The notes under the pieces: generated by a model
The model's database searches: none
Seen by the model: only the letters and a program-made list of their open reading frames with translations
What the model was told of the DNA's origin: nothing
Origin: a virus
DNA: 46,496 nucleotides
Strand: one strand, 5' to 3'
IMG/VR virus record: IMGVR_UViG_3300036791_000426
Span: 1 to 46,496 of that record
Made by a program: the position numbers and the translations under genes
In this document: positions 36 to 40,805 of the stretch, in pieces
Layout of the letters: each line of letters starts with the position of its first letter
Numbering within the stretch: the stretch's first letter is position 1

Positions 36-1517
36 TTGGACGCGGATTTTTGGCCAGCCGATCAGGTCGAGCGCCGGCCCATAGCCACGCTGATCCCGCA
101 CGCGCGGAACGCCCGCACGCACAGCGACGCCCAGGTGGCGCAGATCGCCGCCTCGATCCGCGAATGGGGTTGGACGATCCCGGTTCTGGTTGACGAGGAA
201 GGGACGATCATCGCCGGTCACGGCCGAGTCCTGGCCGGGTTGCAGCTGGGTCTGGCGGACGTGCCGACGATGACGGCGCGGGGTTGGTCGGACGCCAAGC
301 GCCGCGCCTACATGCTGGCGGATAACAAGCTCGCGCTTAACGCCGGCTGGGATGACGAACTGCTCAGGTCCGAGCTTGCCGACCTGATGGAATGCGGGAT
401 GCCCGGCGAACTGCTGGGCTTCGATGACGACGAGCTTGGCGCGCTGCTGGGCGGCCTGGACGACGACCGCCGCAGCGGCCAGCTGATGGAAGCCTTTGGC
501 GGCATCCCGTTTAGCGTCCTGAACGCCCGCGAGGGCTGGTGGCAGCAGCGCAAGCGCGCCTGGATCAGCCTGGGCATCCGCAGCGAGCTTGGCCGGGACG
601 GCACCGCTTACAAGGCGCAGGACGAGCTTAACGCGATCCAGGCGCAGCGCCGGGTCGCGCCGGGCGGATCGCCAAGGCCGGCGGCCGACTACAGCCGCAG
701 CCATGCGCGCGGCAACGGCGCGGGCGGCCAGATGGGCGACGACCAGACCGGGACGAGCATCTTCGATCCGGTCCTCTGCGAGTTGGCTTACCGTTGGTTC
801 AGCCCGCCAGGCGGGACGGTCCTCGACCCGTTTGCCGGCGGATCGGTGCGCGGCGTCGTCGCCGCCAAGCTGGGCCGCGCCTACCAGGGAATCGATCTGA
901 GCGACCGGCAGATCGCCGCCAACCGCGAGCAATGGGCGGCGATGGACCCGACGCCGCTGGCAGGCGGGCCACAGGCGGCCGATCCGGTCTGGACGACCGG
1001 CGACAGCCGGCAGCTGCTGGACGCCGCTGGCGGGCCGGCTGTGGCCGCTGCTGACATGCTGTTCAGCTGTCCGCCCTATGCCGACCTGGAGATTTACAGC
1101 GACGACCCGCGCGACCTGTCCCGGATGGATTGGCCGGGCTTCCTGACCGCCTATCGCGAGATCATCGGCCGGGCCTGCGCGCAGCTGCGCCAGGATCGCT
1201 TCGCGGTCTGGGTGGTTGGCGAGGTCCGAGGCCCCGGCGATGGCTACCGCAGTCTGGTCGCCGAGACTGTCGCGGCTTTCCAGGCCGGCGGCTTGGCCTA
1301 CTACAACGAGGCGATTCTGGTCACGATGGTCGGGTCGCTGACGATCCGGGTCGGCCGGCAGTTCGCCGCGACCCGCAAGCTGGGCAAGACCCACCAGAAC
1401 GTCCTGGTCTTCCTGAAGGGCGACGCGCGCCGGGCGGTCGCCGCCTGCGGGACGGTCGAGACGCCCGACCTGGACGCGCTGCTGCCGGACAGCGCCGACG
1501 ATCCGCTGCTGCTGTAG
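36..1517 (+). CDS. ParB-like nuclease domain / DNA methyltransferase fusion
   Basis: 493 aa. Residues about 13-110 form a ParB/sulfiredoxin-like domain with the GHGR motif at 61-64. A SAM-dependent DNA methyltransferase follows: motif I DPFAGGS at 264-270 and motif IV CPPY at 345-348. CPPY replaces the usual [DNS]PPY, a form seen in phage ParB-methylase fusions. It probably modifies cytosine N4 or adenine N6 of phage DNA; the target is unknown. The TTG start at 36 is chosen because GGAGG lies at 25-29; the ATG at 23 is out of frame. The gene sits just before the terminase genes, as these fusions often do. Confidence 0.85.
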   Translation: MDADFWPADQVERRPIATLIPHARNARTHSDAQVAQIAASIREWGWTIPVLVDEEGTIIAGHGRVLAGLQLGLADVPTMTARGWSDAKRRAYMLADNKLALNAGWDDELLRSELADLMECGMPGELLGFDDDELGALLGGLDDDRRSGQLMEAFGGIPFSVLNAREGWWQQRKRAWISLGIRSELGRDGTAYKAQDELNAIQAQRRVAPGGSPRPAADYSRSHARGNGAGGQMGDDQTGTSIFDPVLCELAYRWFSPPGGTVLDPFAGGSVRGVVAAKLGRAYQGIDLSDRQIAANREQWAAMDPTPLAGGPQAADPVWTTGDSRQLLDAAGGPAVAAADMLFSCPPYADLEIYSDDPRDLSRMDWPGFLTAYREIIGRACAQLRQDRFAVWVVGEVRGPGDGYRSLVAETVAAFQAGGLAYYNEAILVTMVGSLTIRVGRQFAATRKLGKTHQNVLVFLKGDARRAVAACGTVETPDLDALLPDSADDPLLL

Positions 1518-3259: not shown

Positions 3260-4797
3260 ACCATCAACGGGTCGCCCGACTCGTCCGCTTCATCGAGTCG
3301 CTGACCGTCCCAAGCGGCGTCGGCGCTGGCGGCCCGATCCGGCTGCGCCGCTGGCAGCTGCGCTTCATCCGCGATGTCTACGGGCCGACCAACGCCGCCG
3401 GCCTGCGCCGGGTCCGCCGGGCGGTGCTGTCCATCGCCCGCAAGAACGGCAAGACCCTCCTGGCCGCCGTCCTGGTGCTGGCGCATCTGGTCGGCCCGGA
3501 GGCGGTGCTGAACGGCGAAATCTACTCGGCCGCCAACGACCGCGAGCAGGCCGCACAGGTCTTCAAGTGCGCCAAGCAGATCGTGGACGCCGAGCCCGAG
3601 TTGCGGGGCCTGCTGCGCGTCGTCCCGTCCACCAAGACCATCGCCTGCCCGCACAATGGGAGCTTCTACCGGGCGCTGTCGGCCGAGGTCGGCACCAAGC
3701 ACGGCCTCAACCCGACCTTCGTCGTGTTTGACGAACTGGCGCAGGCCAAAAGCCGCGACCTTTACGATGTCCTCGATACGTCGATGGGGGCGCGGGCCGA
3801 GCCGCTGTTCCTGGCGATCAGCACGCAGTCGAACGACCCGGAGCATATCTGCTCCAAGCTGATCGACGACGGCATCAGCGGCCAGGACGAGACGACGGTC
3901 TGCCATCTCTACGCCGCCCCGGACGACGCCGGCCTGATGGATGCGTCGGGCTGGCGCGCGGCGAACCCGGCGCTGGGCGACTTCCGGTCGCTGGACGAAC
4001 TGGCGGTGCTGGCGGCCAAGGCGCAACGGATGCCGGCCGAGGAGCCGAAGTTTCGCAATCTCTACCTGAACCAGCGGGTCAGCCCGGTCAGCACGCTTAT
4101 CTCGCGCCAGGATTGGATGAACTGCCGGGGCGAGTCGGCATGGCGGACGGGCGAGCGCGTCTACCTCGGGCTGGACCTGTCGGCCAAGATCGACCTCTGC
4201 GCCCTGGTCGGCGTCTCGGCCGAGGATCACAGCCGGGTCGCGGCATGGTTTTGGAAGCCCGGCGATTTCCTCGAGGATCACGAACGCCGGGATCGAGCGC
4301 CCTATCGGCAATGGGCGGCGAACGGCTGGATCGAGACGCCGGCCGGACGGTCGATCCATCCGCGCGCCATCGCGCTGAAGCTGGCGCAGCTGAGCGGCGA
4401 GTACGACATCGCCGGGCTGGCCTATGACCGTTGGGGTATCCAGAACCTGCTGCGCGAGTTCGATGAGATCGGCTTGCAGGCGCACCCTGCGGACGATCCT
4501 GGCGACGGTCTGCGGCTGGTGCCTTGGGGTCAGGGCTTCAAGGACATGGCCCCGGCCATCGACGCGCTCGAAACCGCCGTCCTGCATGGCGATCTGATCC
4601 ACGACGAGTCGCCGGTTCTCAGCTGGTGCATGGGCAATGCGGTCGCGGTCGCTGACCCGGCCGGCGGGCGCAAGCTGGACAAGACCAAAGCCCGCTTTCG
4701 GATCGACGGCGCGGTGGCGCTGGCGATGGCGCTGGGCCTGAAGGCCCGCGAGCAGCAGGAAAAACCCAAAGCCTACCAGATGCTGGTCATCGGCTGA
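3256..4797 (+). CDS. terL: Terminase large subunit
   Basis: About 513 aa. The ATPase half has a Walker A-like RKNGKT (residues 62-67), Walker B FVVFDE (155-160) and coupling motif AIST near 187-190. The nuclease half has LGLDLS (D307) and a late RIDGAVALAMA acid. It cuts and pumps DNA into the prohead. No ATG, GTG or TTG lies in this frame between ATG 3001 (deep inside terS) and GTG 3424 (inside the ATPase fold). ATA 3256, overlapping the terS stop as ATAG, is the placement that gives a normal N-terminus (DHQRVARLVRF). The exact start is therefore uncertain; the gene is not. Confidence 0.9.
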   Translation: MDHQRVARLVRFIESLTVPSGVGAGGPIRLRRWQLRFIRDVYGPTNAAGLRRVRRAVLSIARKNGKTLLAAVLVLAHLVGPEAVLNGEIYSAANDREQAAQVFKCAKQIVDAEPELRGLLRVVPSTKTIACPHNGSFYRALSAEVGTKHGLNPTFVVFDELAQAKSRDLYDVLDTSMGARAEPLFLAISTQSNDPEHICSKLIDDGISGQDETTVCHLYAAPDDAGLMDASGWRAANPALGDFRSLDELAVLAAKAQRMPAEEPKFRNLYLNQRVSPVSTLISRQDWMNCRGESAWRTGERVYLGLDLSAKIDLCALVGVSAEDHSRVAAWFWKPGDFLEDHERRDRAPYRQWAANGWIETPAGRSIHPRAIALKLAQLSGEYDIAGLAYDRWGIQNLLREFDEIGLQAHPADDPGDGLRLVPWGQGFKDMAPAIDALETAVLHGDLIHDESPVLSWCMGNAVAVADPAGGRKLDKTKARFRIDGAVALAMALGLKAREQQEKPKAYQMLVIG

Positions 4798-29450: not shown

Positions 29451-29465
29451 CCAATTTGCGGGTAC
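29451..29465 (+). repeat. Direct repeat CCAATTTGCGGGTAC, copy 1
   Basis: A 15-bp exact repeat of 29672-29686, 221 bp apart, both upstream of the integrase gene. Tyrosine integrases bind arm-type repeats around attP, so this pair is a candidate for arm sites; one copy could also be the core. Confidence 0.55.
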
Positions 29466-29534
29466 GCTTGCTCACGCCGACCGCAAAAATCACGCTAACT
29501 CACTGTGTGTGTTGGATAATCTCAGGGTCGAACA

Positions 29535-29551
29535 TTGTTCGCCGCGAACAA
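29535..29551. repeat. Inverted repeat TTGTTCGC-C-GCGAACAA
   Basis: Perfect 8-bp arms about one central base. The GTTC-N5-GAAC core is not the alphaproteobacterial LexA box (direct GTTC repeats), so a dimeric phage repressor site is more likely. Confidence 0.55.
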
Positions 29552-29561
29552 AGTTTATTGC

Positions 29562-29597
29562 GACATGCGAGGACAAGCTCAGACAGGTCATGACAAC
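29562..29597 (+). repeat. Two 16-bp repeats at 20-bp spacing
   Basis: GACATGCGAGGACAAG at 29562-29577 and GACAGGTCATGACAAC at 29582-29597. They share a GACAnG...GACAA pattern with the copies at 29636-29671 and 36424-36479. One site per two helical turns suggests cooperative binding on one DNA face. Confidence 0.6.
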
Positions 29598-29635
29598 TTA
29601 GCCAGTAAATCCAGCCACTTACCCTCGACCCGACC

Positions 29636-29671
29636 GGCATGCTGTGACAAACCCAGACACCCCGCGACAAT
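29636..29671 (+). repeat. Two further 16-bp repeats at 20-bp spacing
   Basis: GGCATGCTGTGACAAA at 29636-29651 and GACACCCCGCGACAAT at 29656-29671. The subsequences CATGCTGTGACA and CACCCCGCGAC recur in the same order at 36466-36493, so part of the control region appears duplicated. Confidence 0.6.
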
Positions 29672-29686
29672 CCAATTTGCGGGTAC
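29672..29686 (+). repeat. Direct repeat CCAATTTGCGGGTAC, copy 2
   Basis: Second copy, 52 bp before the integrase ATG, directly abutting the last 16-bp repeat. See copy 1. Confidence 0.55.
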
Positions 29687-29737
29687 AGTTGCGGGCGCAA
29701 TTCCGCGCCGGCAGGGTTCAGAACCGATCAGGACGAC

Positions 29738-31027
29738 ATGGCCAAGCACGTTAAAGACAAGCTCAACCCCAAGACCCTCCAGCGCGATATCAACCGGCTG
29801 CGGGCGCTCAACGAAAGCCAGACCTTTGGCGATGGCGGCGGCCTCTATCTGGTCGTGACGCCAGCCGGCAACGCGCGCTTCCAGCATCGCTTCCGCTGGA
29901 TGGGCCGCGCCGCCGAACGCTGGTTGCCGGGCGAGTTTCCCGACACGATTGGGCTGGCCGAAGCCCGCGCCATGCGCGACGCCGACAAGCGGCTGCTGCG
30001 GGACAACGTGAACCCGATCCAGGCGGCGAAGCTGCGGATCACCGCCGCCAACGGCGTCCCGACCTTTGCCGACTACGCCAAGGCGCATGTCGCCTTCCTG
30101 GCCCCGCCGCGCCCCAGCTGCCGCGCGGTCTGGCTGCGCCAGATGACCGGCGACGACACCGATGGGCTGACGGTCGGCAAGCTGGCCGGGATGCCCATCG
30201 ACAGCATCGGGCTGGACGACGTTAAGGCGATCATCGCGCCGCTCTGGTTCAGCAACCCGGCGACCGCCAAGACGCTGGCCGGTCGCATCCGCCGGATCAT
30301 CGACCATCGGATGGTCAACGCCGGCCAGGACGACCGCGCCAACCCTGCCAACTTCAAGCGGCTGGAGCGGGCCATCGGCCGCAAGTTCGAGTCGCGCGCC
30401 AAGCCGCGCGCCGCGCTGCCGTGGGAGCAAATCCCGGCGTTCCTGGCCAAGCTGGCGGATCGCCCGCAAATGTCGGCCCGCGCGCTGGAGATGGTCATCG
30501 CGACCGGATGCCGGGCGCAGGAGATCACCCACGCGCGCTGGAGCGAGGTCGATTGGAAGGCCCGGACGCTGACCATCCCGCCGACCCGGATGAAGACGCA
30601 GCACGACGAGGACGGCGAGGCGCATGTCGTCCCGCTCAGCCTGCACATGGTCATGATCCTGCGCCGGGCGGTGCCGCCGGTCGGCTATCGGCCCGACGAC
30701 CTGATCTTCCCCAATGGTCGCCGCAACCCCTACGACCCGAAGGAACTGCTGGATCACGTCAAGGCGCTGGCCGGCGACAAGCCGACGACGCACGGCTTCA
30801 GGTCGGCGCTTTGCGATTGGGGAACGGACGGGACGCATCGCGCGCGGCCGGAGTTTGATCGCGATCTGATGAACGTCTGCATCGCCCATGAGATTGGCGA
30901 CGAGGTGAGCCAAGTCTACCTGCGGACCCGCTGGCTGGGCCGCCGCCGGATCGTCATGCGGGAGTGGTCGCGGTTCTGCCTGACGCCGCCCAGCGCGGTC
31001 GTCCTGGCCTTCCGCAAGGCCGCCTGA
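29738..31027 (+). CDS. int: Tyrosine integrase (P4-like)
   Basis: 429 aa. The N-terminal DUF4102-like arm-binding domain (residues ~25-100: FGDGGGLYLVVTPAG, WLPGEFPDTIGLAEARAMR) precedes a core-binding domain and the catalytic domain. Catalytic residues visible: R259 (ATGCRAQE), K286, H352 and R355 (HGFR), H384 (AHEIG), Y394 (QVYLR). It integrates phage DNA into the host chromosome. The gene runs opposite to both flanking minus-strand operons and ends at a strong hairpin. Its presence makes the phage temperate. Confidence 0.92.
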   Translation: MAKHVKDKLNPKTLQRDINRLRALNESQTFGDGGGLYLVVTPAGNARFQHRFRWMGRAAERWLPGEFPDTIGLAEARAMRDADKRLLRDNVNPIQAAKLRITAANGVPTFADYAKAHVAFLAPPRPSCRAVWLRQMTGDDTDGLTVGKLAGMPIDSIGLDDVKAIIAPLWFSNPATAKTLAGRIRRIIDHRMVNAGQDDRANPANFKRLERAIGRKFESRAKPRAALPWEQIPAFLAKLADRPQMSARALEMVIATGCRAQEITHARWSEVDWKARTLTIPPTRMKTQHDEDGEAHVVPLSLHMVMILRRAVPPVGYRPDDLIFPNGRRNPYDPKELLDHVKALAGDKPTTHGFRSALCDWGTDGTHRARPEFDRDLMNVCIAHEIGDEVSQVYLRTRWLGRRRIVMREWSRFCLTPPSAVVLAFRKAA

Positions 31028-31045
31028 CAGCTGATCGATCAGCTG
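31028..31045. repeat. 18-bp perfect palindrome after the integrase stop
   Basis: CAGCTGATCGATCAGCTG directly follows the integrase TGA. It contains two CAGCTG and two GATC sites. It could be a protein-binding site (excisionase or host factor) or part of an att site; function unknown. Confidence 0.6.
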
Positions 31046-31052
31046 ACCATCG

Positions 31053-31086
31053 GGGCCGCTGGCGCAAGTCAGCGGCCCTTCTTCTT
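31053..31086 (+). terminator. Rho-independent terminator of the integrase gene
   Basis: GGGCCGCTG (31053-31061) pairs with CAGCGGCCC (31070-31078) over an 8-nt loop, followed by TTCTTCTT. It overlaps the last codons of the convergent excisionase-like gene. Confidence 0.8.
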
Positions 31087-31272
31087 GCCGGCCGCCTCGT
31101 CCAGCGCGGCCTGGAGGTCTTCGGCCCGGATCAGCGTGCGGCCCACCCAATGGTAGGCCCGCAGCTTCCCCTCTTTGATGCGCCGATAGAGCGTGCGCTC
31201 CGACATGCCTAGCAAGTCGGCGGACTCGGCCACCGTGTAAGTCAGTCGGTCGGCCCTCGTCGCCTGGGTCAT
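31069..31272 (-). CDS. Excisionase-like HTH protein (MerR/HTH_17 type)
   Basis: 67 aa from ATG 31272, with GGAG 8 nt upstream. YTVAESADLLGMSERTLYRRIKEG is a winged HTH_17 motif, then VGRTLIRAEDLQAALDEA, with a Lys-rich tail GKKKGR. Such proteins bend DNA at att sites as excisionases or act as regulators. It is the last gene of the minus-strand operon and converges on the integrase, which supports an excisionase role. Confidence 0.75.
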   Translation of the reverse strand: MTQATRADRLTYTVAESADLLGMSERTLYRRIKEGKLRAYHWVGRTLIRAEDLQAALDEAAGKKKGR

Positions 31273-31583
31273 CGTTTCAACTCCGTAACCCATCCTGACC
31301 CTCCACAGATAAACCAGCGCCTGCCGTCCTTGCCCAGCACCACACGATCAGCCGGGGCGGGCTTCAGTGCGCGATCATGCGCGGCGGCTCCCACAGGCCC
31401 GCGATCCAGGCTTCGGCGTCCTCGTTCTCGGGCTGGCCCAGCGCCTGCCAAAGAAAGTCGGCCGCCCGCTGACCCTGACGGTTCAGCACCTCCAGCGCGG
31501 CCAGGATCAGCCGCTCGTCGTCCTCGTCCATTTGCCCCTCCATCGAACAAATCGCTCTGCGCTGGCGCGCCCTGGCGCTTCAT
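31269..31583 (-). CDS. Overlapping ORF, uncertain (Gly/Arg-rich middle)
   Basis: 104 codons open, with ATGA overlaps at both ends (upstream stop at 31580, excisionase start at 31272), as in the rest of the operon. The first ~15 residues (KRQGAPAQSDLFDG) and the last ~25 (DRVVLGKDGRRWFICGGSGW) look like protein; the middle looks like a shadow of the gene at 31364-31531. Either the whole ORF is real, or a shorter gene (for example from GTG 31394, 41 aa) covers the C-terminal part. Confidence 0.35.
   Translation of the reverse strand: MKRQGAPAQSDLFDGGANGRGRRAADPGRAGGAEPSGSAGGRLSLAGAGPARERGRRSLDRGPVGAAAHDRALKPAPADRVVLGKDGRRWFICGGSGWVTELKR
31364..31531 (-). CDS. 55-aa hypothetical protein
   Basis: MDEDDERLILAALEVLNRQG, then AADFLWQALGQPENEDAEAW. 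GGAGGGG lies 5 nt before the ATG and codons are strongly G/C-ending, so it is likely real although it sits inside another open frame. Acidic, helical; function unknown. Confidence 0.55.
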   Translation of the reverse strand: MDEDDERLILAALEVLNRQGQRAADFLWQALGQPENEDAEAWIAGLWEPPRMIAH

Positions 31584-31801
31584 GTCGCCCGCGCCTTGCC
31601 CAGCGCGGCCCAGCCCGCTTCGGTCAACCGGACGCCGCGCCAATCCTCGCGGCCCTGCGGGATCGCCGCGTCGTTGATTTCGGCTAGGCCAAGCTCCAGC
31701 AGCCGGTCCAGCGTCCGGCCCTTGCACTCGCCCAGCTGCGCCCAATCCGCCTTGGACAGCCAATCCAGCATGAAGCGTTCGGTCGGGGTCAGGTCAGCCA
31801 C
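31580..31801 (-). CDS. Small winged-helix-like protein, paralog of 43728-43937
   Basis: 73 aa from GTG 31801 with GGAG 7 nt upstream. LTPTERFMLDWLSKADWAQLG, TLDRLLELGLAEI, VRLTEAGWAAL. The protein at 43728 has the same frame (LTRMERVLLEWL, FDGLIALGLIQ, VQLTAAGWAEI), suggesting duplication. The shape fits a small winged-helix domain; function unknown. Confidence 0.6.
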   Translation of the reverse strand: MADLTPTERFMLDWLSKADWAQLGECKGRTLDRLLELGLAEINDAAIPQGREDWRGVRLTEAGWAALGKARAT

Positions 31802-32171
31802 CGGCCTGCTCCCTGCGCAGCTGCTGGACGCGCTTGCCGGCCGCCATGACCCCGGCGTGCGCCCCATCGCTGGCGACCAGCTGCTTGCGGGCATGGCGCG
31901 GCAGCGACGCATAGAACGCGCCGCAGTCGAAGCGCCGGCAGATGACCGGCGCGCGGTCGTGGATCGTGCAGCCCTCCGGCCCGACATAGATGCAGCTGCC
32001 GTCCGGGTTGCGCTGGATCGCCAGGACGGTCTGGCCGGTCAGCGGGTTCGTCACCTGTTCGGTCAGGTAGAGCGCCGGGACATCGCCCTTCTCGGGATGC
32101 AGCGCGATCAGTTCGTGATGGCGACAGCAGGCTGTGCAGCCGTTGCAAGGGACGTTGGCGCGGCCGGTCAT
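31794..32171 (-). CDS. YkgJ-family cysteine cluster protein
   Basis: 125 aa. CNGCTACC near the N-terminus (Cys 9, 12, 15, 16) and CIYVGPEGCTIHDRAPVICR, then FDC, form the CxxCxxC...C...CxIHDxRPxxCRxF pattern of the YkgJ family (zinc or iron-sulfur binding). These occur in bacteria and phages; the function is not known. Overlaps both neighbours. Confidence 0.8.
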   Translation of the reverse strand: MTGRANVPCNGCTACCRHHELIALHPEKGDVPALYLTEQVTNPLTGQTVLAIQRNPDGSCIYVGPEGCTIHDRAPVICRRFDCGAFYASLPRHARKQLVASDGAHAGVMAAGKRVQQLRREQAGG

Positions 32172-32347
32172 GTCGTCACCGCTAGCAGGGTTTGCAGGGT
32201 CGCCACGATGGCGCTCATCGCCGCGATCTCGCGGTCGGCTTCGTCCCGGCTCATGCGCCCGCCCTCGACCCGGCGCGGATAGACCCGCTGGCGCAGGGCT
32301 AGCTCGCGTCTGGCGGCCTTCAGTTGGTCGGCAATGGTGACGGTCAT
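32168..32347 (-). CDS. 59-aa coiled-coil hypothetical protein
   Basis: MTVTIADQLKAARRELALRQ, VEGGRMSRDEADREIAAMSA, IVATLQTLL. Two helices with a short turn; the middle MSRDEADREIAAM resembles small phage helical-hairpin proteins. Coupled by ATGA. Confidence 0.55.
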   Translation of the reverse strand: MTVTIADQLKAARRELALRQRVYPRRVEGGRMSRDEADREIAAMSAIVATLQTLLAVTT

Positions 32348-32667
32348 GTCAGTCGCCCGGTCTTCTCGCGCGCCCGCCTGGTCGGCTTCCTCGGCGCTTT
32401 CTCGCGGGCCTTGCGCGTCTTGGCGGACGGCTCGCGGCGCGGCTTCGGGGTCGTGTCCTCGACCGCCATCAGCATCCCGCGCCCGGCGTCCGCCAGCCGG
32501 TAGCGTTCGCGGAAATGGCTGAAGCCATGCTCGCGGACATGCGCCACCGTCTCGTTGGGGAAGTTGCGGCCAGACCGCGACGCGCAGACCCAGGCGAGTC
32601 CGCTGTCGTCCTGCTGGATCATGCCGCCGGTCAGCAGATGCGCGATCAGATGCCGATGGCCCATCAT
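32344..32667 (-). CDS. Hypothetical protein with Lys/Arg-rich tail
   Basis: 107 aa. HLIAHLLTGGMIQQDDSGLAW, GFSHFRERYRLADAGRGMLM, then ~40 residues very rich in Lys, Arg and Pro (KTRKAREKAPRKPTRRAREK), likely disordered and nucleic-acid-binding. ATG 32667 overlaps the previous stop (ATGATG). Confidence 0.55.
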   Translation of the reverse strand: MMGHRHLIAHLLTGGMIQQDDSGLAWVCASRSGRNFPNETVAHVREHGFSHFRERYRLADAGRGMLMAVEDTTPKPRREPSAKTRKAREKAPRKPTRRAREKTGRLT

Positions 32668-32927
32668 GGCGGCGCGTCGTCGAAGGTGATGTTGTAGGCG
32701 GTCAGCGGTCGGTTGGGCCGCATGTCCGACCGCAGCGGCCGGACCTTGGACTGCTGCTTCCAGGTCGCGAACGCCTCGTCCAGATCGCGGAAGCGCATCG
32801 CCTTGGCGATGTCGCTGGTGAAGCTGATCGCGCCGAAGCCGTCGTTGCCGTCCGGGTCGAACGACTCCAGCCATTCGCCCTCGACCGCGCGGCCTATCGC
32901 GTCGCCCCAATTGCGGATCAGGATCAT
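32664..32927 (-). CDS. Hypothetical protein
   Basis: 87 aa: MILIRNWGDAIGRAVEGEWL, FGAISFTSDIAKAMRFRDLD, EAFATWKQQSKVRPLRSDMR, PLTAYNITFDD. The order ISFTSDxxKAxRFxDxxEAxxxW is seen in small conserved phage proteins; role unknown. Confidence 0.6.
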   Translation of the reverse strand: MILIRNWGDAIGRAVEGEWLESFDPDGNDGFGAISFTSDIAKAMRFRDLDEAFATWKQQSKVRPLRSDMRPNRPLTAYNITFDDAPP

Positions 32928-33115
32928 GGGTCGCTGTCCGGGCGGGTCAGCGCGGCCAGCTGCTTGGCCTGGGCCAGCAGCGCCAGGATATCGCTTTTCA
33001 GCGCCTCCTGGGCGTCGGCATAGCTGCCCTCGGGACCGTAGGCCGCCATCAGCGGGCCGATATAGTCGCCGGGCTCTGTGGCGAAGGTCGCTAGGCGACG
33101 GGCGGCCTCAGACAT
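32924..33115 (-). CDS. 63-aa hypothetical protein
   Basis: ATG 33115 with AGGAGG upstream. RRLATFATEPGDYIGPLMAA, then helical DAQEALKSDILALLAQAKQL. Function unknown. Confidence 0.55.
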   Translation of the reverse strand: MSEAARRLATFATEPGDYIGPLMAAYGPEGSYADAQEALKSDILALLAQAKQLAALTRPDSDP

Positions 33116-33377
33116 CGCGGCCTCCTGCCAGGATCGCGCGCGGATCGGGCGGCGGGTCGCGCATGAAGTCGTGCGCCCAATCCTGGGTGTATCCGCAGGC
33201 CGGGCAGAGCCAGCCGTTGGGGTTGGCGACCAGCACCCCGCCGTCAGATTGGCCCAGCAGGGCCGCAGACTGCGCGTGGGCGGCGTCGTGGCGGTAAAAG
33301 GGGTGGACGCTGCCGGCCGCCTGCCAGCGGTTAAGCGCGGCCACCGTGGCGGCATCCCAAGGGGCGGTGATCTTCAT
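33108..33377 (-). CDS. Hypothetical protein with CPACGYTQ zinc-like knuckle
   Basis: 89 aa. TVAALNRWQAAGSVHPFYRH, VANPNGWLCPACGYTQDWAH. The pair CPAC with nearby His and HPFYxHD give a possible metal site. Short phage proteins with VxxLNxWQxxGxxHPFTC are common; function unknown. Overlaps the next gene by 8 nt. Confidence 0.6.
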   Translation of the reverse strand: MKITAPWDAATVAALNRWQAAGSVHPFYRHDAAHAQSAALLGQSDGGVLVANPNGWLCPACGYTQDWAHDFMRDPPPDPRAILAGGRDV

Positions 33378-33469
33378 CGCAGCACCAGCGCCAAGGCCGC
33401 CCAGAGGGCCAGCCATGCCAGGATCGCCCAGACCGCGACGCCGACGCGGCTAATCAGCCTGCCGATCAT
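33374..33469 (-). CDS. 31-aa single-helix membrane peptide
   Basis: MIGRLISRVGVAVWAILAWL, then LWAALALVLR. GGGAGG before the ATG and ATGA/TGATG overlaps at both ends argue that it is translated. One membrane helix. Confidence 0.55.
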   Translation of the reverse strand: MIGRLISRVGVAVWAILAWLALWAALALVLR

Positions 33470-34041
33470 CACAGCCTCCCGGCCAGGACGGCGCGCTCGA
33501 TTTCGGTCAAATCCCAGGCGGCCAGCACGATCCAGAGGTCTGCCAGGCCGACGCGCCGGATCAGCATCGGGTCTTTCGGCGGGACCGGCCGCCATTCGGC
33601 TTCGTAGAGGATGTGGTAGTTCTGCAAGCCGCGCTTGGGCCGCAGATGGATCGGCACCAGCGGCGTCATCGACGCATAGTGCCGGCCCCACTTGCGCGGG
33701 CGAGGCGTGAAGCTGCCGGCGGGCAGATCGATATAGGTCCGATGGTGGGCGTCGCGCGCCCAGGCGTGGGTCGAGAATCGCGCGCCGCCGTTCTCGCGCA
33801 TGTAGAGGTGGCATTCAGGCGCGTCGGCGCGGACGATGGCCAGCTGCGGCAACTCATCCTCGCCCAGCCCGGCGGCGGCGATGCTGGCCAGCGCGCGGAT
33901 GACCATGCGGTTCTTCGCGATGGCGTCATAGACGCGCAAAATCTCGAGATCGACCGGCGTCGAGTAGTGCCGGTGTTCCTGATATTTGCGCCGCAGCTGG
34001 GCGGCCTCCTCGCGGTCAACGGTGATCGTCTCGGCGTGCAT
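33469..34041 (-). CDS. Hypothetical protein
   Basis: 190 aa from ATG 34041. Helical start (REEAAQLRRKYQEHRHY), then DLEILRVYDAIAKNRMVIRA, LPQLAIVRADAPECHLYM, RTYIDLPAG, then VPIHLRPKRGLQNYHILYEA, EWRPVPPKDPMLIRRVGLAD. The layout occurs in conserved phage early proteins of unknown role. The 180 bp upstream (34042-34221) have no convincing gene, though an open frame runs through them. Confidence 0.6.
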   Translation of the reverse strand: MHAETITVDREEAAQLRRKYQEHRHYSTPVDLEILRVYDAIAKNRMVIRALASIAAAGLGEDELPQLAIVRADAPECHLYMRENGGARFSTHAWARDAHHRTYIDLPAGSFTPRPRKWGRHYASMTPLVPIHLRPKRGLQNYHILYEAEWRPVPPKDPMLIRRVGLADLWIVLAAWDLTEIERAVLAGRL

Positions 34042-34221
34042 GTCCTTGATCCTGGCCCGGTTGATTGAGGCGAGAAGGCCACGGCGCTCGCCGGGCGGCG
34101 CTTGGCCGTGGCCCTGCCGTTGCCGCCGGGTCGATCCACAGGAACGGCGGCTTCTTGGCCCGACCGGGCTCGTTTTGGGGGCCAGCCCTGGCCGGCTCGT
34201 CCGCAAGGCGCGGGCCGCACC

Positions 34222-34608
34222 CTACGAACCTCGAAACGTCACATGATGATCGGCTGCGAAGCGATGGATGGCGTCCAGCAGCCGGGCGAACTCGCTGACC
34301 GTCAGCGCGCTGGAGGAGGTGTTCAGGTTGACCCAGCCGCGCCCGTCCAGCGCCGGCACGATCCGCGATCCGCGATCCATGTCGGCCAGGAACAAGAGCT
34401 TCCAATCGTCGGGCGGCAGCTGCTGGCCATGCCAATCCAGCTGCTCCGCGATGTCGGTCAGCGCGGCCCACATCGCGGCGTTCTGCGCGGCGGTGCGCTT
34501 CTGCGGCGTCGCGAACGTCACCAGCGTCCCGTCCTCGCTGCTCCAGGCCCAGGCGGCGGCCTTGTGTCTGGCTGTCGGGTTGGTCAGCCGGATCGCGGCC
34601 TGCGGCAT
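34222..34608 (-). CDS. NinB-like recombination protein
   Basis: 128 aa. RTAAQNAAMWAALTDIAEQL, then LPPDDWKLLFLADMDRGSR, STSALTVSEF-type C-terminus (SSSALTVSEFARLLDAIHRF) match NinB, the lambda Orf-type single-strand-binding recombination mediator. It sits in one operon with ERF and YqaJ proteins, completing a Red-like system. Confidence 0.85.
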   Translation of the reverse strand: MPQAAIRLTNPTARHKAAAWAWSSEDGTLVTFATPQKRTAAQNAAMWAALTDIAEQLDWHGQQLPPDDWKLLFLADMDRGSRIVPALDGRGWVNLNTSSSALTVSEFARLLDAIHRFAADHHVTFRGS

Positions 34609-34620
34609 GGTCGGCGGCCC

Positions 34621-34911
34621 TCATTGCAGCGTGCCTTGCGCGGCCTGCCGGCGGACTAGCTCGCGCAGCGACAGGTCAACGGCGGCGAAGTCCTCGCGGA
34701 CGCCATTGCGCGCTTCGCCAAGGTCAACGTCGCCATCCGCGACCAGCTGGGCGATCACGCTGGCGTAGGCGGTCAGCAGAATCCGCACCAGCGTCGCCGC
34801 CGCCGTCTCGGGCGTCAGCCGTTCGGCCAGTTCGGTCGCGACCTCGCGGATGACGCTGGACGCGATGACCACCGGCTGATCGGCGGGATCGAGCGCCGGA
34901 TAAACCTTCAT
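34621..34911 (-). CDS. Hypothetical helical protein
   Basis: 96 aa from ATG 34911, overlapping the exonuclease stop. VIREVATELAERLTPETAAA, LVRILLTAYASVIAQLVADG, LRELVRRQAAQG. Helical. Between exonuclease and NinB genes; may assist recombination, but this is position only. Confidence 0.55.
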   Translation of the reverse strand: MKVYPALDPADQPVVIASSVIREVATELAERLTPETAAATLVRILLTAYASVIAQLVADGDVDLGEARNGVREDFAAVDLSLRELVRRQAAQGTLQ

Positions 34912-35546
34912 GCGGCTAGCTCCTGGCGACCATAGCGTTCCGTCAGCTGGTCGATCCGCCCGGCAATCTCGGCCAGGAAGCGCGTCACCTGGGTTTCCAG
35001 TTCGATGATCTGGCTGGTGTCGCGGAAGACCCGTTCCACATGCAGCTGCATCGACTCCGGCAGGCGCGGATCGAACGAAACGTAGTCGCACCAGCTGCGG
35101 CCGGTGCAAGCCATCTGCCATTGCATCTGGAGAACGTGCGCGCCGTCGATCTGGCCGGGCTCGCTCAGCAGCCGGTCCAGGTGCGTCGCGATGTTCGGGC
35201 ATTTGATTTCGACCAGCCCGTCGCTGTCCACATACCCGTCCGGGCTCGCGCCGCTCCAGGCGACCTCGGGGTGGTCGAGGAAGCCGGCGGCCTGGACGAT
35301 CTGGCCGCAGCGGTCGGCGTAGACCAGCCGCGCCTCGTCCTCATGGTCGATCCCCCATTGCATCGGCGCGCTGACATAGTTGGCGCAGGGTCGCCCGGTC
35401 ATCCGCTCCGCGATGATGTCGGCCGCATAGTTGACCCGCAGCGCCGACCAGCCGGTTTTCGTCCTGGCGACGACATCGCTGATCCGGCTGGCGGTCGCCT
35501 TGCCCAGCCGCTGCGCATACCATTCCGGCGTCCGCTGCTGGATCAT
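34908..35546 (-). CDS. YqaJ / lambda-exonuclease family nuclease
   Basis: 212 aa. QRTPEWYAQRLGKATASRIS at the N-terminus, then SGASPDGYV (acid), LVEIKCP (E-x-K) and HVLQMQWQMACTG give the PD-(D/E)XK exonuclease core of the YqaJ family. It should degrade one strand of a double-strand end to feed the ERF annealing protein encoded upstream. Confidence 0.9.
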   Translation of the reverse strand: MIQQRTPEWYAQRLGKATASRISDVVARTKTGWSALRVNYAADIIAERMTGRPCANYVSAPMQWGIDHEDEARLVYADRCGQIVQAAGFLDHPEVAWSGASPDGYVDSDGLVEIKCPNIATHLDRLLSEPGQIDGAHVLQMQWQMACTGRSWCDYVSFDPRLPESMQLHVERVFRDTSQIIELETQVTRFLAEIAGRIDQLTERYGRQELAA

Positions 35547-35716
35547 TCGTCACCTGCAATCAGGCGGCCCGTTTCGAGGCGGTGCGCGATTTCGAGCCAG
35601 AGTTCGGCGACCGCACTGAGCGAGCGACCGGTGCGCTCGGCTTCGGCTTTCAGTGCAGCCCGCATTTCGCCGGTTATCCGGGCGTTGAGGACGCTTCGCT
35701 TGCCGCCTTTTTTCAT
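35543..35716 (-). CDS. Ribbon-helix-helix DNA-binding protein (Arc/CopG-like)
   Basis: 57 aa: SVLNARITGEMRAALKAEAE, then RTGRSLSAVAELWLEIA form the strand-helix-helix of an RHH repressor. ATGA overlap with the exonuclease gene. It may autoregulate the recombination operon. Confidence 0.75.
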   Translation of the reverse strand: MKKGGKRSVLNARITGEMRAALKAEAERTGRSLSAVAELWLEIAHRLETGRLIAGDE

Positions 35717-36393
35717 TGAGCCGGCACCTGTTCGTCGCCGCCAGGAGGGGCGGTCAGTTCGCCCTTCCGCCGCTCGTAAAGGTCATCGATCCGCTTGGCG
35801 GTCTTCGGGTCTTCGGCCTTGAGTTCGGCCCGCAGGCCGGCGGCCAGTTCCCAGGCCCGCGCCAGATCGGTCCACAGCTTGATGTCGCGCAGCGTCGTCT
35901 CCAGGCGTCGGACCCGCTCGCCGCGATCCGGCCGCTGCGGCTCAGCCTGTTGCAGCGGCGGACGCTGGACGCCGACCGCCCCCTCCGCATCGTCATCCTC
36001 GCCGGCCGGCGCAACGGTCAGGATCGCTTGCAGCGCCTGCCGGCGCGCGTAGGTCAGCGCGGACCCGATCCCTTGGGCGTCGTTGCGGCTGACCGGGACA
36101 AGGTGCGTCGCCCGCAGCCACTGGCCGCTGCTGTGCATCAGGATCGTCGTCACCTGGACCGCGCCGGCCGCCGATGTGACCGGCTGGAGGACGCTGATCC
36201 CATGCTCGTTCAGGGCGGGCAGGACCGCTTCCGCGATCTCGGTCAGCGAGGCGTAACGGTTGTTGAAGTGCGGATTCGTCGCGTCCTTCTGGACCCGCGC
36301 GATAGCGGCCTGCGCAGCTGGCAGGGCCTTGGCCAGTTCCCCGATGTCCGGGCTGGTTTCGATGTCCACGGTTCTGCCTTCGGGTTGCATCAT
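35713..36393 (-). CDS. ERF-family single-strand annealing protein
   Basis: 226 aa. IGELAKALPAAQAAIARVQK, NPHFNNRYASLTEIAEAVLP, LNEHGISVLQP, MHSSGQWL and GSALTYARRQALQAIL are the ERF core; the C-terminus is helical and basic. It anneals complementary single strands during phage recombination. First gene of the second minus-strand operon, transcribed from the 36394-36685 control region. ATG 36393 or 36390 can start it. Confidence 0.9.
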   Translation of the reverse strand: MMQPEGRTVDIETSPDIGELAKALPAAQAAIARVQKDATNPHFNNRYASLTEIAEAVLPALNEHGISVLQPVTSAAGAVQVTTILMHSSGQWLRATHLVPVSRNDAQGIGSALTYARRQALQAILTVAPAGEDDDAEGAVGVQRPPLQQAEPQRPDRGERVRRLETTLRDIKLWTDLARAWELAAGLRAELKAEDPKTAKRIDDLYERRKGELTAPPGGDEQVPAQ

Positions 36394-36423
36394 TCGACCG
36401 CCGTTTTCGTCCGCTCACGGCGT

Positions 36424-36479
36424 GTCAGGTTGCGCCAACTTCTGACAGGTTGCGCCAAACTCAGACATGCTGTGACAGT
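36424..36479 (+). repeat. Three tandem 16-bp repeats at 20-bp pitch
   Basis: GTCAGGTTGCGCCAAC (36424), GACAGGTTGCGCCAAA (36444) and GACATGCTGTGACAGT (36464). The first two share CAGGTTGCGCCAA exactly. The spacing of two helical turns and the near-identical units look like operators or plasmid-type iterons. They lie upstream of the ERF gene. Confidence 0.7.
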
Positions 36480-36480
36480 A

Positions 36481-36496
36481 TTCACCCCGCGACCAC
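36481..36496 (+). repeat. Fourth related block shared with the integrase control region
   Basis: CACCCCGCGACCA here matches CACCCCGCGACAA at 29658-29670, and in both places it follows CATGCTGTGACA. Pitch from the previous unit is 17 bp rather than 20. Confidence 0.5.
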
Positions 36497-36637: not shown

Positions 36638-36680
36638 CGCGATTACCCGTTGTCAACGCGGATTTTCGCGCTTACCCGTT
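36638..36680 (+). repeat. 14-bp direct repeat CGCGMTTACCCGTT before the HTH gene
   Basis: CGCGATTACCCGTT at 36638-36651 and CGCGCTTACCCGTT at 36667-36680, 29 bp apart, the second ending 5 nt before ATG 36686. A repressor bound here would block initiation, suggesting autoregulation. Confidence 0.5.
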
Positions 36681-36685
36681 AGGTT

Positions 36686-36895
36686 ATGGGTGCGACAACT
36701 GAAGGGATGAGGCGGGTCGCCAGCGTCGCTCAGCGCGTCGGCCTGGCCGCTTTTGCCGACGCCTCGGGCGTCCCGGAATCGACCCTGCGGAGCTACCGAG
36801 ATAGGGGGTGGACGGCTGAATCGCTGATGATCTGCGAGCGGCTGATCGCGACCGCTGACCGGCTGGATCGGGCCGGTCAGGCGCGCGGCGCGTGA
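36686..36895 (+). CDS. Small HTH protein, candidate Cro-like regulator
   Basis: 69 aa. LAAFADASGVPESTLRSYRDRGW fits a helix-turn-helix like those of Cro-type proteins that act early in lytic growth. No clear Shine-Dalgarno precedes ATG 36686 (or in-frame ATG 36707), so the mRNA may be leaderless or weakly translated. It is first in the rightward early block and has repeated elements just upstream. Confidence 0.65.
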   Translation: MGATTEGMRRVASVAQRVGLAAFADASGVPESTLRSYRDRGWTAESLMICERLIATADRLDRAGQARGA

Positions 36896-39008: not shown

Positions 39009-40805
39009 ATGCCCGACTTCCGCGACAGCGGCCCGCGCCTTGTCATCGAGGACGTTTGCGCGGCGCTGCACGGCACGCTGAGCCATGACAATCAGGGCCG
39101 GCGCGTGATCCGCTGTCCTGGGCCTGGACACTCCCGCCATGACCTGTCGCTGTCGGTCTGGGTGGACGACGACGAGCCGGACGGCTTCGGCGTGCTGTCG
39201 TTCAGCGACGCCGACCAGGACATCGCCCAGCTGCGCGATTGGGTCCGGCAACAATGCGGGCTGCCAGCCTGGAAACCCAACGGCGGCCACGCCAACGGCC
39301 ACGCCAAGGCGCAGGCCAGCGAGATCACCGCGAAGTACGTCTACGAGGACGAGGGCGGCCAGCCGGTCCTGCGCGTCAATCGCACCAAGGCGAAGAAGTT
39401 CTTGCAGGAGCGACCGGACGGTCGCGGCGGCTGGGAATGGGGCGGGATCGATGCGCTGGCCAAGGTGCCGTTCAAGTTGCCCGATCTGGTCGAGGCCATC
39501 GGGCTGGGCCGGACGGTCTTCATCTGCGAGGGCGAGAAGGGATCGCTGTCGCTGATCGAACGCGGCTATGCGGCGACCTGTAGTCCGGGCGGCGCAGGCA
39601 AGTGGCCGGTGCATTTCGCCAAATGGTTTGCCGGCGCGTCGGTCGTCATCCTGCCGGACAACGACGAGCCCGGCCGCAGCCATGCGACGAAGGTCGAAGC
39701 CAACCTGATCGGCGTCGCGGCCGATGTCCGAGTCCGCCGCCTGCCCGGCCTACCATTAGGCGGCGATGTCTTCGATTTCCTCCAGGGCGGCGGCGATCCG
39801 GCGATCATAGCCGATCTGCCGGATGGTCCGCCGCCGCGCGGCCATACTGCGGCCGAGCTATGGAACATGAACTTCCCGCCGATCCAGTTTGCGGTGCCGC
39901 TCTACATCGCTGAAGGGCTGACGCTCCTGGCCGGCGCGCCCAAGCGCGGCAAGTCTTGGCTGGCGCTCGATGTCTGCGTCTCGGTCGCGGATGGCGGCTA
40001 TACGCTGGGCGATCAGCATTGCCAGCCGGGCGATGTTCTCTACTGCGCGCTGGAGGACAGCGAGCGCCGGATGAAGTCCCGGCTGCGGACGTTCTGCTCG
40101 CGATCAGGCCGCCCGCCAGGCCGGTTGACGATCTGGTTCAACAACGACCTCCCCAGGCTGGGCATGGGCTGCGAGGAAGCCCTGCGCGAATGGATCGCCA
40201 GCTGCGCCGCGCCCCGGCTGATCGTCATCGACACGCTGAACTACATCAGGCCCGAGCGCGCCCGCGACGAGGAGCCCTACAGCTACGATTATCGGTCGGT
40301 GATCGGCTTGCAGCGGCTGGCGTCGGAGTTCGGGATCGCAATCGTCGTCATCCACCACACGCGCAAGAGCGCCGCCGACGACTACCTGGAAAGCGTCAGC
40401 GGGACGAACGGGCTGACCGGCGGATCAGACGCCGTGATGGTCCTGGAACGCCAGGGCGACGGCTCGACGGTCTTCAAGGGTCGCGGCCGGGACATCGAGG
40501 AGTTCGAGCTAGCCGCGCGCTTCGACAAGGAAGAATGCCGCTGGTCGGTCATGGGCAACGCGGCCGAGTCGCGGCTGTCCGAGACGAAGGCGAAAATCCT
40601 GAAGCATCTGCGCGACGCCGGGTGGTTCCTGACGCCGGCCGAGATCGCCAGCCAGACCGGGCTGCGCCGCAGCGTGGTCGATCAGCGGCTGTTCCACATG
40701 GTCAAGGAAGGCGAGGTCCGGCGGGTCGGGCGCGGCAAATATGGTCTGCCCGAGCATGAGATTGCGGGCGGCAAGACCGACGACGACGAGTCCGACGATG
40801 ACTGA
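39009..40805 (+). CDS. Primase-helicase: Toprim plus RepA-like AAA ATPase
   Basis: 598 aa. The N-terminus has a Cys/His cluster (RCPGPGHSRHD) like primase zinc-binding domains, then a Toprim region (FICEGEKGSLSLIERG, VVILPDNDEPG). An AAA_25/RepA-type helicase follows: Walker A GAPKRGKSW, Walker B RLIVIDTLNYI, motif IAIVVIHHTRK. A C-terminal winged helix (TPAEIASQTGLRRSVVDQRL) and acidic tail end it. It should prime and unwind DNA at the phage origin. An inverted-repeat cluster follows directly. Confidence 0.9.
   Translation: MPDFRDSGPRLVIEDVCAALHGTLSHDNQGRRVIRCPGPGHSRHDLSLSVWVDDDEPDGFGVLSFSDADQDIAQLRDWVRQQCGLPAWKPNGGHANGHAKAQASEITAKYVYEDEGGQPVLRVNRTKAKKFLQERPDGRGGWEWGGIDALAKVPFKLPDLVEAIGLGRTVFICEGEKGSLSLIERGYAATCSPGGAGKWPVHFAKWFAGASVVILPDNDEPGRSHATKVEANLIGVAADVRVRRLPGLPLGGDVFDFLQGGGDPAIIADLPDGPPPRGHTAAELWNMNFPPIQFAVPLYIAEGLTLLAGAPKRGKSWLALDVCVSVADGGYTLGDQHCQPGDVLYCALEDSERRMKSRLRTFCSRSGRPPGRLTIWFNNDLPRLGMGCEEALREWIASCAAPRLIVIDTLNYIRPERARDEEPYSYDYRSVIGLQRLASEFGIAIVVIHHTRKSAADDYLESVSGTNGLTGGSDAVMVLERQGDGSTVFKGRGRDIEEFELAARFDKEECRWSVMGNAAESRLSETKAKILKHLRDAGWFLTPAEIASQTGLRRSVVDQRLFHMVKEGEVRRVGRGKYGLPEHEIAGGKTDDDESDDD

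What the first reader, a model, noticed from the sequence alone, without database searches (positions are those of the whole stretch)
29562..36496. One 16-bp repeat family at 20-bp pitch in both control regions
Copies start at 36424, 36444, 36464 and at 29562, 29582, 29636, 29656, with a related block at 36481. The pitch is exactly two helical turns within each cluster, and CATGCTGTGACA then CACCCCGCGAC occur in the same order in both regions. The two regions bracket the integrase and the recombination operon. They could be operators of one master regulator or replication/partition iterons, giving a plasmid-like control circuit.
Basis: seen in the sequence. Interest (0 to 1): 0.7.

Follow-up and report, generated by a model that had tools for sequence, protein, structure and literature searches.

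The report
Excisionase-type binding arrays in a phage
Two control regions of a bacterial virus carry the same four-letter DNA word (GACA) once per turn of the helix, most likely landing strips for the small protein that cuts the virus out of its host chromosome and also controls its own genes: a known kind of switch, here in a phage with no close relatives in the collections searched.

Summary
The repeats are real and far beyond chance, but the unit is shorter than reported: GACA (sometimes GCCA/GTCA) exactly every 10 bp, all on one strand. There are 8 units upstream of the tyrosine integrase (29562-29669, two blocks) and 6 units 30-84 bp upstream of the ERF recombination operon (36424-36477). 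Of all mixed tetramers, only GACA forms such 4-unit arrays in the 46.5 kb, at exactly these three places; none of 200 shuffles gives three. Arrays of small head-to-tail binders, one per helical turn, at attP and again in an early control region are the signature of dual-function recombination directionality factors (186 Apl, P2 Cox, RdfS). The window's only HTH_17 (Xis-like) gene, 31069-31272(-), beside the integrase at the far end of the ERF operon, is the best candidate. In unrelated viral contigs picked only by this array, 15 of 17 with an integrase have it within 1.5 kb (4 of 13 for an 11-bp-pitch control); three have a tRNA gene within 150 bp. Partition or plasmid-like iterons are not supported. 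No binding, excision or promoter was demonstrated; attP and binder are inferred. In other phages similar arrays also flank HNH/terminase genes, so the word is not exclusive to excision.

The parts
29562..29595 (+). Array A1: four perfect GACA units at 10-bp pitch (29562, 29572, 29582, 29592)
29636..29669 (+). Array A2: GGCA, GACA, GACA, GACA at 10-bp pitch (29636, 29646, 29656, 29666); contains CATGCTGTGACA and CACCCCGCGAC, shared with region B
36424..36477 (+). Array B: GTCA, GCCA, GACA, GCCA, GACA, GACA at 10-bp pitch, 30-84 bp upstream of the ERF start codon
36481..36496 (+). Related block TTCACCCCGCGACCAC, 12/16 like 29656 but 3 bp out of register with array B
29453..29471 (+). Candidate integrase arm-type site (left): AATTTGCGGGTACgcTTGC
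   Evidence: only two copies in the window, 0.03 expected with up to 3 mismatches; function inferred from position
29674..29692 (+). Candidate integrase arm-type site (right): AATTTGCGGGTACagTTGC
   Evidence: inferred
29532..29554 (.). Candidate attP core: ACATTGTT-CGCCGCG-AACAAAGT (8-bp arms, 7-bp centre); could instead be a terminator hairpin
   Evidence: sequence; one search lists 29535-29551 as terminator-like; low confidence
29738..31027 (+). Tyrosine integrase (Arm-DNA-bind_3 + Phage_integrase)
31069..31272 (-). Xis-like HTH_17 protein, 67 aa (or 74 aa from an ATG at 31293); best candidate binder; only HTH_17 in the record
35713..36393 (-). ERF single-strand annealing protein, first gene of the leftward operon that ends with the Xis-like gene
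35543..35716 (-). Small ribbon-helix-helix-like protein (weak matches), second gene of the leftward operon; rival binder
34908..35546 (-). YqaJ-type exonuclease
36686..36895 (+). 69-aa all-helical HTH protein (Xre/SinR-like model), first rightward gene; probable Cro/repressor-type regulator, unlikely binder of the GACA arrays

Best explanation
The repeats are the binding sites of a small winged-helix recombination directionality factor (excisionase), most likely the HTH_17 protein at 31069-31272(-). One monomer sits on each GACA, one helical turn after the next on the same face, forming a short head-to-tail filament that bends the DNA. In region A the filament lies between a putative attP core and the right arm-type integrase site; it would favour excision over integration and could also repress int, whose start codon is 69 bp past the array. 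In region B the same filament sits 30-84 bp upstream of the ERF operon, where it most likely represses that operon's promoter. Because the Xis gene is the last gene of that operon, this makes a negative feedback loop on Xis and on the recombination genes. Shown: the arrays, their statistics, their positions, the gene families. Inferred: the identity of the binder, that region A is attP, the sign of regulation at region B, and a single leftward transcript.
For: Array statistics. Region A is directly upstream of a tyrosine integrase and flanked by a unique pair of 19-bp repeats like arm sites. The window has one HTH_17 gene, over the Pfam cut-off, with PHROG 'excisionase and transcriptional regulator' and other excisionase families as hits. 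Its best PDB sequence match is Pukovnik Xis (4j2n, E=0.02, weak), and its model (pLDDT 73) is closest, with weak scores, to BldC-DNA, with Pukovnik Xis and Tn916 Xis also among the hits. Literature: RDFs bind direct repeats one turn apart, head-to-tail; 186 Apl has five sites at attP and seven at pR-pL (PMC7498355); RdfS binds attP and its own promoter (PMC11963761); Pf4 XisF4 is also dual (PMC7379572). Comparative: among viral contigs collected only by the array pattern, 15 of 17 loci with an integrase have the array within 1.5 kb of it versus 4 of 13 for the 11-bp-pitch control (Fisher p=0.002); HTH_17 genes within 3 kb are more frequent when an integrase is near (5/15 vs 4/101, p=0.002); three arrays lie 33-150 bp from a tRNA gene next to an integrase. 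With Pfam's own model, 8 of 50 such contigs have an integrase and 7 of these 8 have the array within about 1.6 kb.
Against: 42 of 50 contigs carrying such arrays show no tyrosine integrase, and several arrays sit beside HNH, terminase small subunit or late-regulator genes, so GACA/10 bp is not specific to excision. In 186/P2-like phages the RDF gene is the first gene of the early operon; here it is the last of the leftward one. No promoter was recognised in region B. No close relative of the phage was found to test conservation, and phages with ERF relatives have no comparable array upstream of ERF. The arm-type repeats have no counterpart beside an integrase elsewhere. The sequence and fold links to Xis are individually weak beyond HTH_17.
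Confidence: 0.62

Rival explanations
1. The ribbon-helix-helix protein at 35543-35716(-) is an operon autoregulator that binds both regions as cooperating dimers on direct repeats (ParD/Arc/ParR style) and co-represses int and the ERF operon; excision is not involved.
For: Its gene is the second in the operon whose upstream region holds array B; RHH proteins can bind tandem repeats of about 10 bp (general knowledge); weak partition-protein hit (phrog_795, E=0.0018).
Against: No RHH family appears among the 25 commonest families of genes flanking such arrays in other phages, whereas integrase and HTH_17 do; only those 25 of 62 Pfam families were visible, so this is not decisive.
Confidence: 0.15
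2. Replication or partition iterons of a phage-plasmid: the arrays are ori or centromere-like sites.
For: Tandem short repeats at helical pitch resemble iterons or parC; a gene with ParB-like plus DNA methyltransferase domains lies at 36-1517.
Against: Arrays lie in the integrase and recombination promoter regions, not next to the ParB-like gene or the primase-helicase (39009-40805); the phage encodes a tyrosine integrase; no ParA/ParM or plasmid Rep was seen among the proteins scanned (not every ORF was scanned).
Confidence: 0.06
3. Operators of the Cro/repressor-like protein encoded at 36686: region B is the lysis-lysogeny operator and region A co-represses int.
For: First gene of the rightward early operon, as are Apl and Cox in their phages; a weak MerR-type HTH hit (E=0.019).
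Against: Model is all-helical, Xre/SinR-like, without a wing; such proteins usually bind palindromes, whereas these are one-strand direct repeats; a separate pair of repeats (CGCGmTTACCCGTT, 36638 and 36667) lies directly before its gene and suits it better.
Confidence: 0.1
4. A host nucleoid or response-regulator protein with a direct-repeat box reads both regions.
For: Some host regulators also use direct repeats about one turn apart (general knowledge).
Against: Similar arrays occur in phage contigs of very different G+C content (about 0.34-0.70 among non-microsatellite loci), so a single host factor is unlikely.
Confidence: 0.05

Closest known systems
Phage 186 Apl (dual excisionase and regulator of pR-pL)
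   Same: Direct repeats about one helical turn apart, in two places: beside int/attP (5 sites in 186; 8 units here) and in the early control region (7 sites; 6 units here); small HTH protein (PMC7498355).
   Different: [quoted passage not shown] here the candidate gene is the last gene of the leftward operon, next to int, and array B lies upstream of that operon. Operators are 6 bp in Apl; here a 4-bp core.
RdfS of ICEMlSymR7A (Mesorhizobium)
   Same: Binds attP and its own promoter, coupling excision and autoregulation (PMC11963761).
   Different: No consensus motif was found for RdfS, whereas here the GACA register is exact; rdfS is remote from intS, here the gene adjoins int.
Pukovnik/L5-type Xis, AlpA and P4 Vis (HTH_17-like RDFs)
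   Same: Same superfamily; Pukovnik Xis (4j2n) is the top PDB sequence hit; sites are tandem repeats that are bent on binding.
   Different: Identity is low; regulation far from att is documented for P4 and the P2-type proteins but was not looked up for Pukovnik.
BldC (Streptomyces)
   Same: MerR-like wHTH that binds direct repeats head-to-tail; best fold hit.
   Different: A bacterial development regulator, unrelated to recombination.

Membership tests
Dual-function RDF (Apl/Cox/Xis type) | Small winged-helix HTH protein of the Xis/HTH_17 group encoded by the element | tested here: met
   HTH_17 49.5 bits against cut-off 27; phrog_66 E=4e-9; helices plus two-strand wing in the model
Dual-function RDF (Apl/Cox/Xis type) | Gene near a tyrosine integrase | tested here: met
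   About 42 bp from the 3' end of int (29738-31027), convergent
Dual-function RDF (Apl/Cox/Xis type) | Binding sites are direct repeats one helical turn apart | tested here: met
   GACA at 10-bp pitch; statistics (sequence level only; that this protein binds them is not shown)
Dual-function RDF (Apl/Cox/Xis type) | One set of sites lies in attP | tested here: inconclusive
   Array directly upstream of int with arm-like repeats; attP itself not mapped
Dual-function RDF (Apl/Cox/Xis type) | A second set lies in an early control region away from att | tested here: met
   Array B, 6.8 kb from array A, upstream of the ERF operon
P2/186 Apl-Cox subgroup | RDF gene is the first gene of the early lytic operon, with sites between face-to-face promoters | tested here: not met
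   Candidate gene is the last of the leftward block; array B lies between divergently oriented genes. Not filed in this subgroup
Dual-function RDF (Apl/Cox/Xis type) | Protein binds and bends these sites, promotes excision and regulates transcription | not testable with these tools
   Needs biochemistry
ParR/parC-type partition locus | RHH adaptor plus iterons plus adjacent ParM/ParA filament ATPase | tested here: inconclusive
   RHH-like gene present; neighbours scanned are ERF, YqaJ, RuvC-like, DUF3102 and no ATPase partner; not every small ORF was scanned
Plasmid replication iterons | Adjacent Rep initiator gene | tested here: inconclusive
   Only a primase-helicase 2.5 kb away was found; genes next to the arrays are int, ERF and a small HTH protein

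The most novel reading that the evidence does not exclude
GACA once per 10 bp is a widely shared binding grammar of small HTH_17/MerR-like phage proteins, re-used by unrelated phages both at attachment sites (excision) and at the start of packaging (HNH/terminase small subunit region), so that one DNA word marks two different DNA-processing sites. One contig (L148) has an HTH_17 gene that overlaps the first of two such arrays flanking an HNH gene just before portal.
Probability: 0.25. Interest if true: 0.6.

Novelty: new member of a known kind. Interest (0 to 1): 0.42.

Why it matters
It turns an unexplained repeat into a testable excision and early-control switch in a phage with no close relatives in the collections searched. 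It shows that a purely sequence-level signature (a tetramer at exact helical pitch in two places) can locate a likely attachment site and name a likely excisionase without homology to characterised phages. If the broader pattern in other phages holds, the same signature would annotate many attP and possibly packaging sites.

Tried and rejected
16-bp/20-bp unit: rejected in favour of 4-bp/10-bp. Other pitches 4-30 and the minus strand: nothing comparable. Close relatives by DNA, integrase, Xis or the 36686 protein: none; one genome-contig hit was a remote Planctomycetes integrase. Arrays upstream of ERF in ERF-bearing phages: only A-rich or coding-like repeats. Arm-site pattern in IMG/VR: three chance matches away from any integrase. 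tRNA-based attB in the window: no tRNA. The 11-bp-pitch control set is itself not free of plausible biological arrays (4 of 13 integrase-bearing loci near int), so it is a conservative control. The 5-bp GACNN microsatellites (e.g. L097, L156) were excluded as a different kind of repeat; my integrase and HTH_17 profiles were built by iteration from the window's own proteins and miss divergent members. Laying the host genome was not possible: the window is a virus record and no host is held.
Full report
Setting. The window is a complete IMG/VR virus record of 46,496 bases, not a stretch of a host chromosome. It encodes terminase, capsid/protease and portal proteins, a tape-measure protein and tail fibres in the left part, a tyrosine integrase at 29738-31027(+), a leftward block of genes from ERF (36393) to an Xis-like HTH_17 gene (31069), and a rightward early block with a RuvC-like resolvase, a DUF3102 protein and a primase-helicase. 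It is a temperate-type tailed phage without close relatives in the collections searched; the nearest integrase in phage records is that of Caulobacter phage DMCA at 32%.

Checking the observation. The cited copies exist at the cited coordinates. Compared with each other as 16-mers they agree at only 7-14 positions. Laying the sequence out in tens shows why: GACA recurs every 10 bp, at 29562, 29572, 29582, 29592, then 29636 (GGCA), 29646, 29656, 29666, and in region B at 36424 (GTCA), 36434 (GCCA), 36444, 36454 (GCCA), 36464, 36474. G, C and A at positions 1, 3 and 4 of the unit are invariant in all 14 units. All are on the + strand.

Is it more than chance? An unsupervised scan for any tetramer in four units at 10-bp pitch ranks exactly these three places first in the window. 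Restricted to mixed tetramers, GACA is the only one of 252 reaching 15/16 anywhere, and it does so at three separate places; none of 200 dinucleotide-preserving shuffles has any tetramer at three places. No other pitch from 4 to 30 gives a comparable GACA array, the minus strand has none, and local shuffles of the two intergenic regions never reach the observed scores (5000 each). About 0.96 Mb of other phage DNA has none of at least 14/16. The two longer shared words (CATGCTGTGACA, CACCCCGCGAC) make regions A and B more alike than shuffles (12 of 1000 reach the score), which fits one reader protein or a shared origin.

What region A is. It is the non-coding stretch before the integrase gene. 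A pair of 19-bp repeats, AATTTGCGGGTACnnTTGC at 29453 and 29674, is unique in the window (0.03 expected) and brackets the arrays, as arm-type integrase sites do around an attP core. A near-palindrome ACATTGTT-CGCCGCG-AACAAAGT (29532-29554) between them has the shape of a core site, but the scan also lists its centre as terminator-like. No tRNA is present and the arm repeats have no counterpart beside an integrase elsewhere, so attP remains an inference.

What region B is. The array lies 30-84 bp upstream of the ERF start codon (36393) and about 209 bp before the rightward gene at 36686. It is therefore placed to act on the leftward operon. The scan recognised no sigma-70-type promoter there. 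A separate repeat pair, CGCGmTTACCCGTT at 36638 and 36667, lies immediately before the 36686 gene and probably belongs to that gene's own regulator.

Who binds. The record has a single HTH_17 gene, 31069-31272(-), beside int. It scores over the Pfam cut-off and hits PHROG 66 'excisionase and transcriptional regulator' and further excisionase families. Its best PDB sequence match, though weak, is Pukovnik Xis, and its model resembles, with weak scores, BldC bound to direct repeats, Pukovnik Xis and Tn916 Xis. The 36686 product models as an Xre/SinR-like all-helical HTH. The RHH protein is a real but weaker rival.

How it would work. RDFs bind tandem repeats one helical turn apart, head to tail, with low single-site affinity and strong cooperativity, and bend the DNA; 186 Apl does so at attP (five sites) and between pR and pL (seven sites), and acts as both excisionase and regulator (PMC7498355). 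RdfS binds attP and its own promoter (PMC11963761). Pf4 XisF4 is excisionase and regulator (PMC7379572). The anatomy here matches: a filament on region A would shape attP/attR for excision and may cover the int promoter; a filament on region B would shut down the leftward operon that ends with the Xis gene. This gives a burst of Xis followed by self-limitation. The sign of regulation and the single transcript are inferred.

Test in unrelated phages. Among loci in which an integrase was detected, 15 of 17 pitch-10 arrays but only 4 of 13 pitch-11 arrays lay within 1.5 kb of it (Fisher p=0.002); an HTH_17 gene within 3 kb was more frequent when an integrase was near (5/15 vs 4/101, p=0.002); three arrays lay 33, 46 and 150 bp from tRNA-Glu, -Thr and -Lys genes next to integrases, as attachment sites do. 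With the Pfam model over whole contigs, 7 of the 8 contigs with an integrase have the array within about 1.6 kb of it. So this array type does mark attachment regions in independent phages.

Limits of that test. Most pitch-10 contigs show no tyrosine integrase (42 of 50). A census of genes flanking the arrays shows, besides integrases, HNH endonucleases, terminase small subunits and ArpU-like late regulators. In L148 an HTH_17 gene overlaps the start of the first of two arrays that flank an HNH gene just before portal. The word is therefore probably shared by several head-to-tail binders, and proximity to int/xis, not the word alone, carries the argument in the window.

Verdict. The likeliest meaning is a dual-site excisionase array: a new member of a known kind. 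It differs from the P2/186 subgroup in gene order, since the RDF gene is last in the operon it would control. Confidence is about 0.6 for the whole mechanism, higher (about 0.75) for region A being part of attP.

Noticed in passing
L148:2886-2919 and 3571-3620; L160:3029 and 3742; L122:3744/3805: GACA/10-bp arrays in other phages also occur around HNH endonuclease, late-regulator (ArpU-like) and terminase/portal genes, sometimes as divergent pairs; in L148 an HTH_17 gene overlaps the start of the first of two arrays. This suggests packaging-start (cos/pac) sites that use the same word.
   Followed up: partly
window 36638-36651 and 36667-36680: Direct repeat CGCGmTTACCCGTT, 29 bp apart, immediately upstream of the small HTH gene at 36686; candidate operators of that gene's product or of a repressor.
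   Followed up: partly
window 36-1517: Gene with an N-terminal ParB-like domain fused to a DNA methyltransferase (PHROG 498 and several ParB-like families).
   Followed up: no
window about 2043-2090: Strong 9-bp periodic repeat (24/25 in five units), probably an in-frame three-residue coding repeat.
   Followed up: no
L124:1560-1731: In this contig the array starts at the integrase start codon, about 100 bp after a sequence resembling a tRNA 3' end (TTCGATCCCCGCGCGGCCCACCA), and the same contig has a second array 15 kb away (L095:74-107): a possible parallel to the window's two-site layout.
   Followed up: partly
L204-L323: GACA at 11-bp pitch also yields arrays that look biological (for example L208, L313), some near integrases, so 11-bp versions of the same site may exist.
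   Followed up: no
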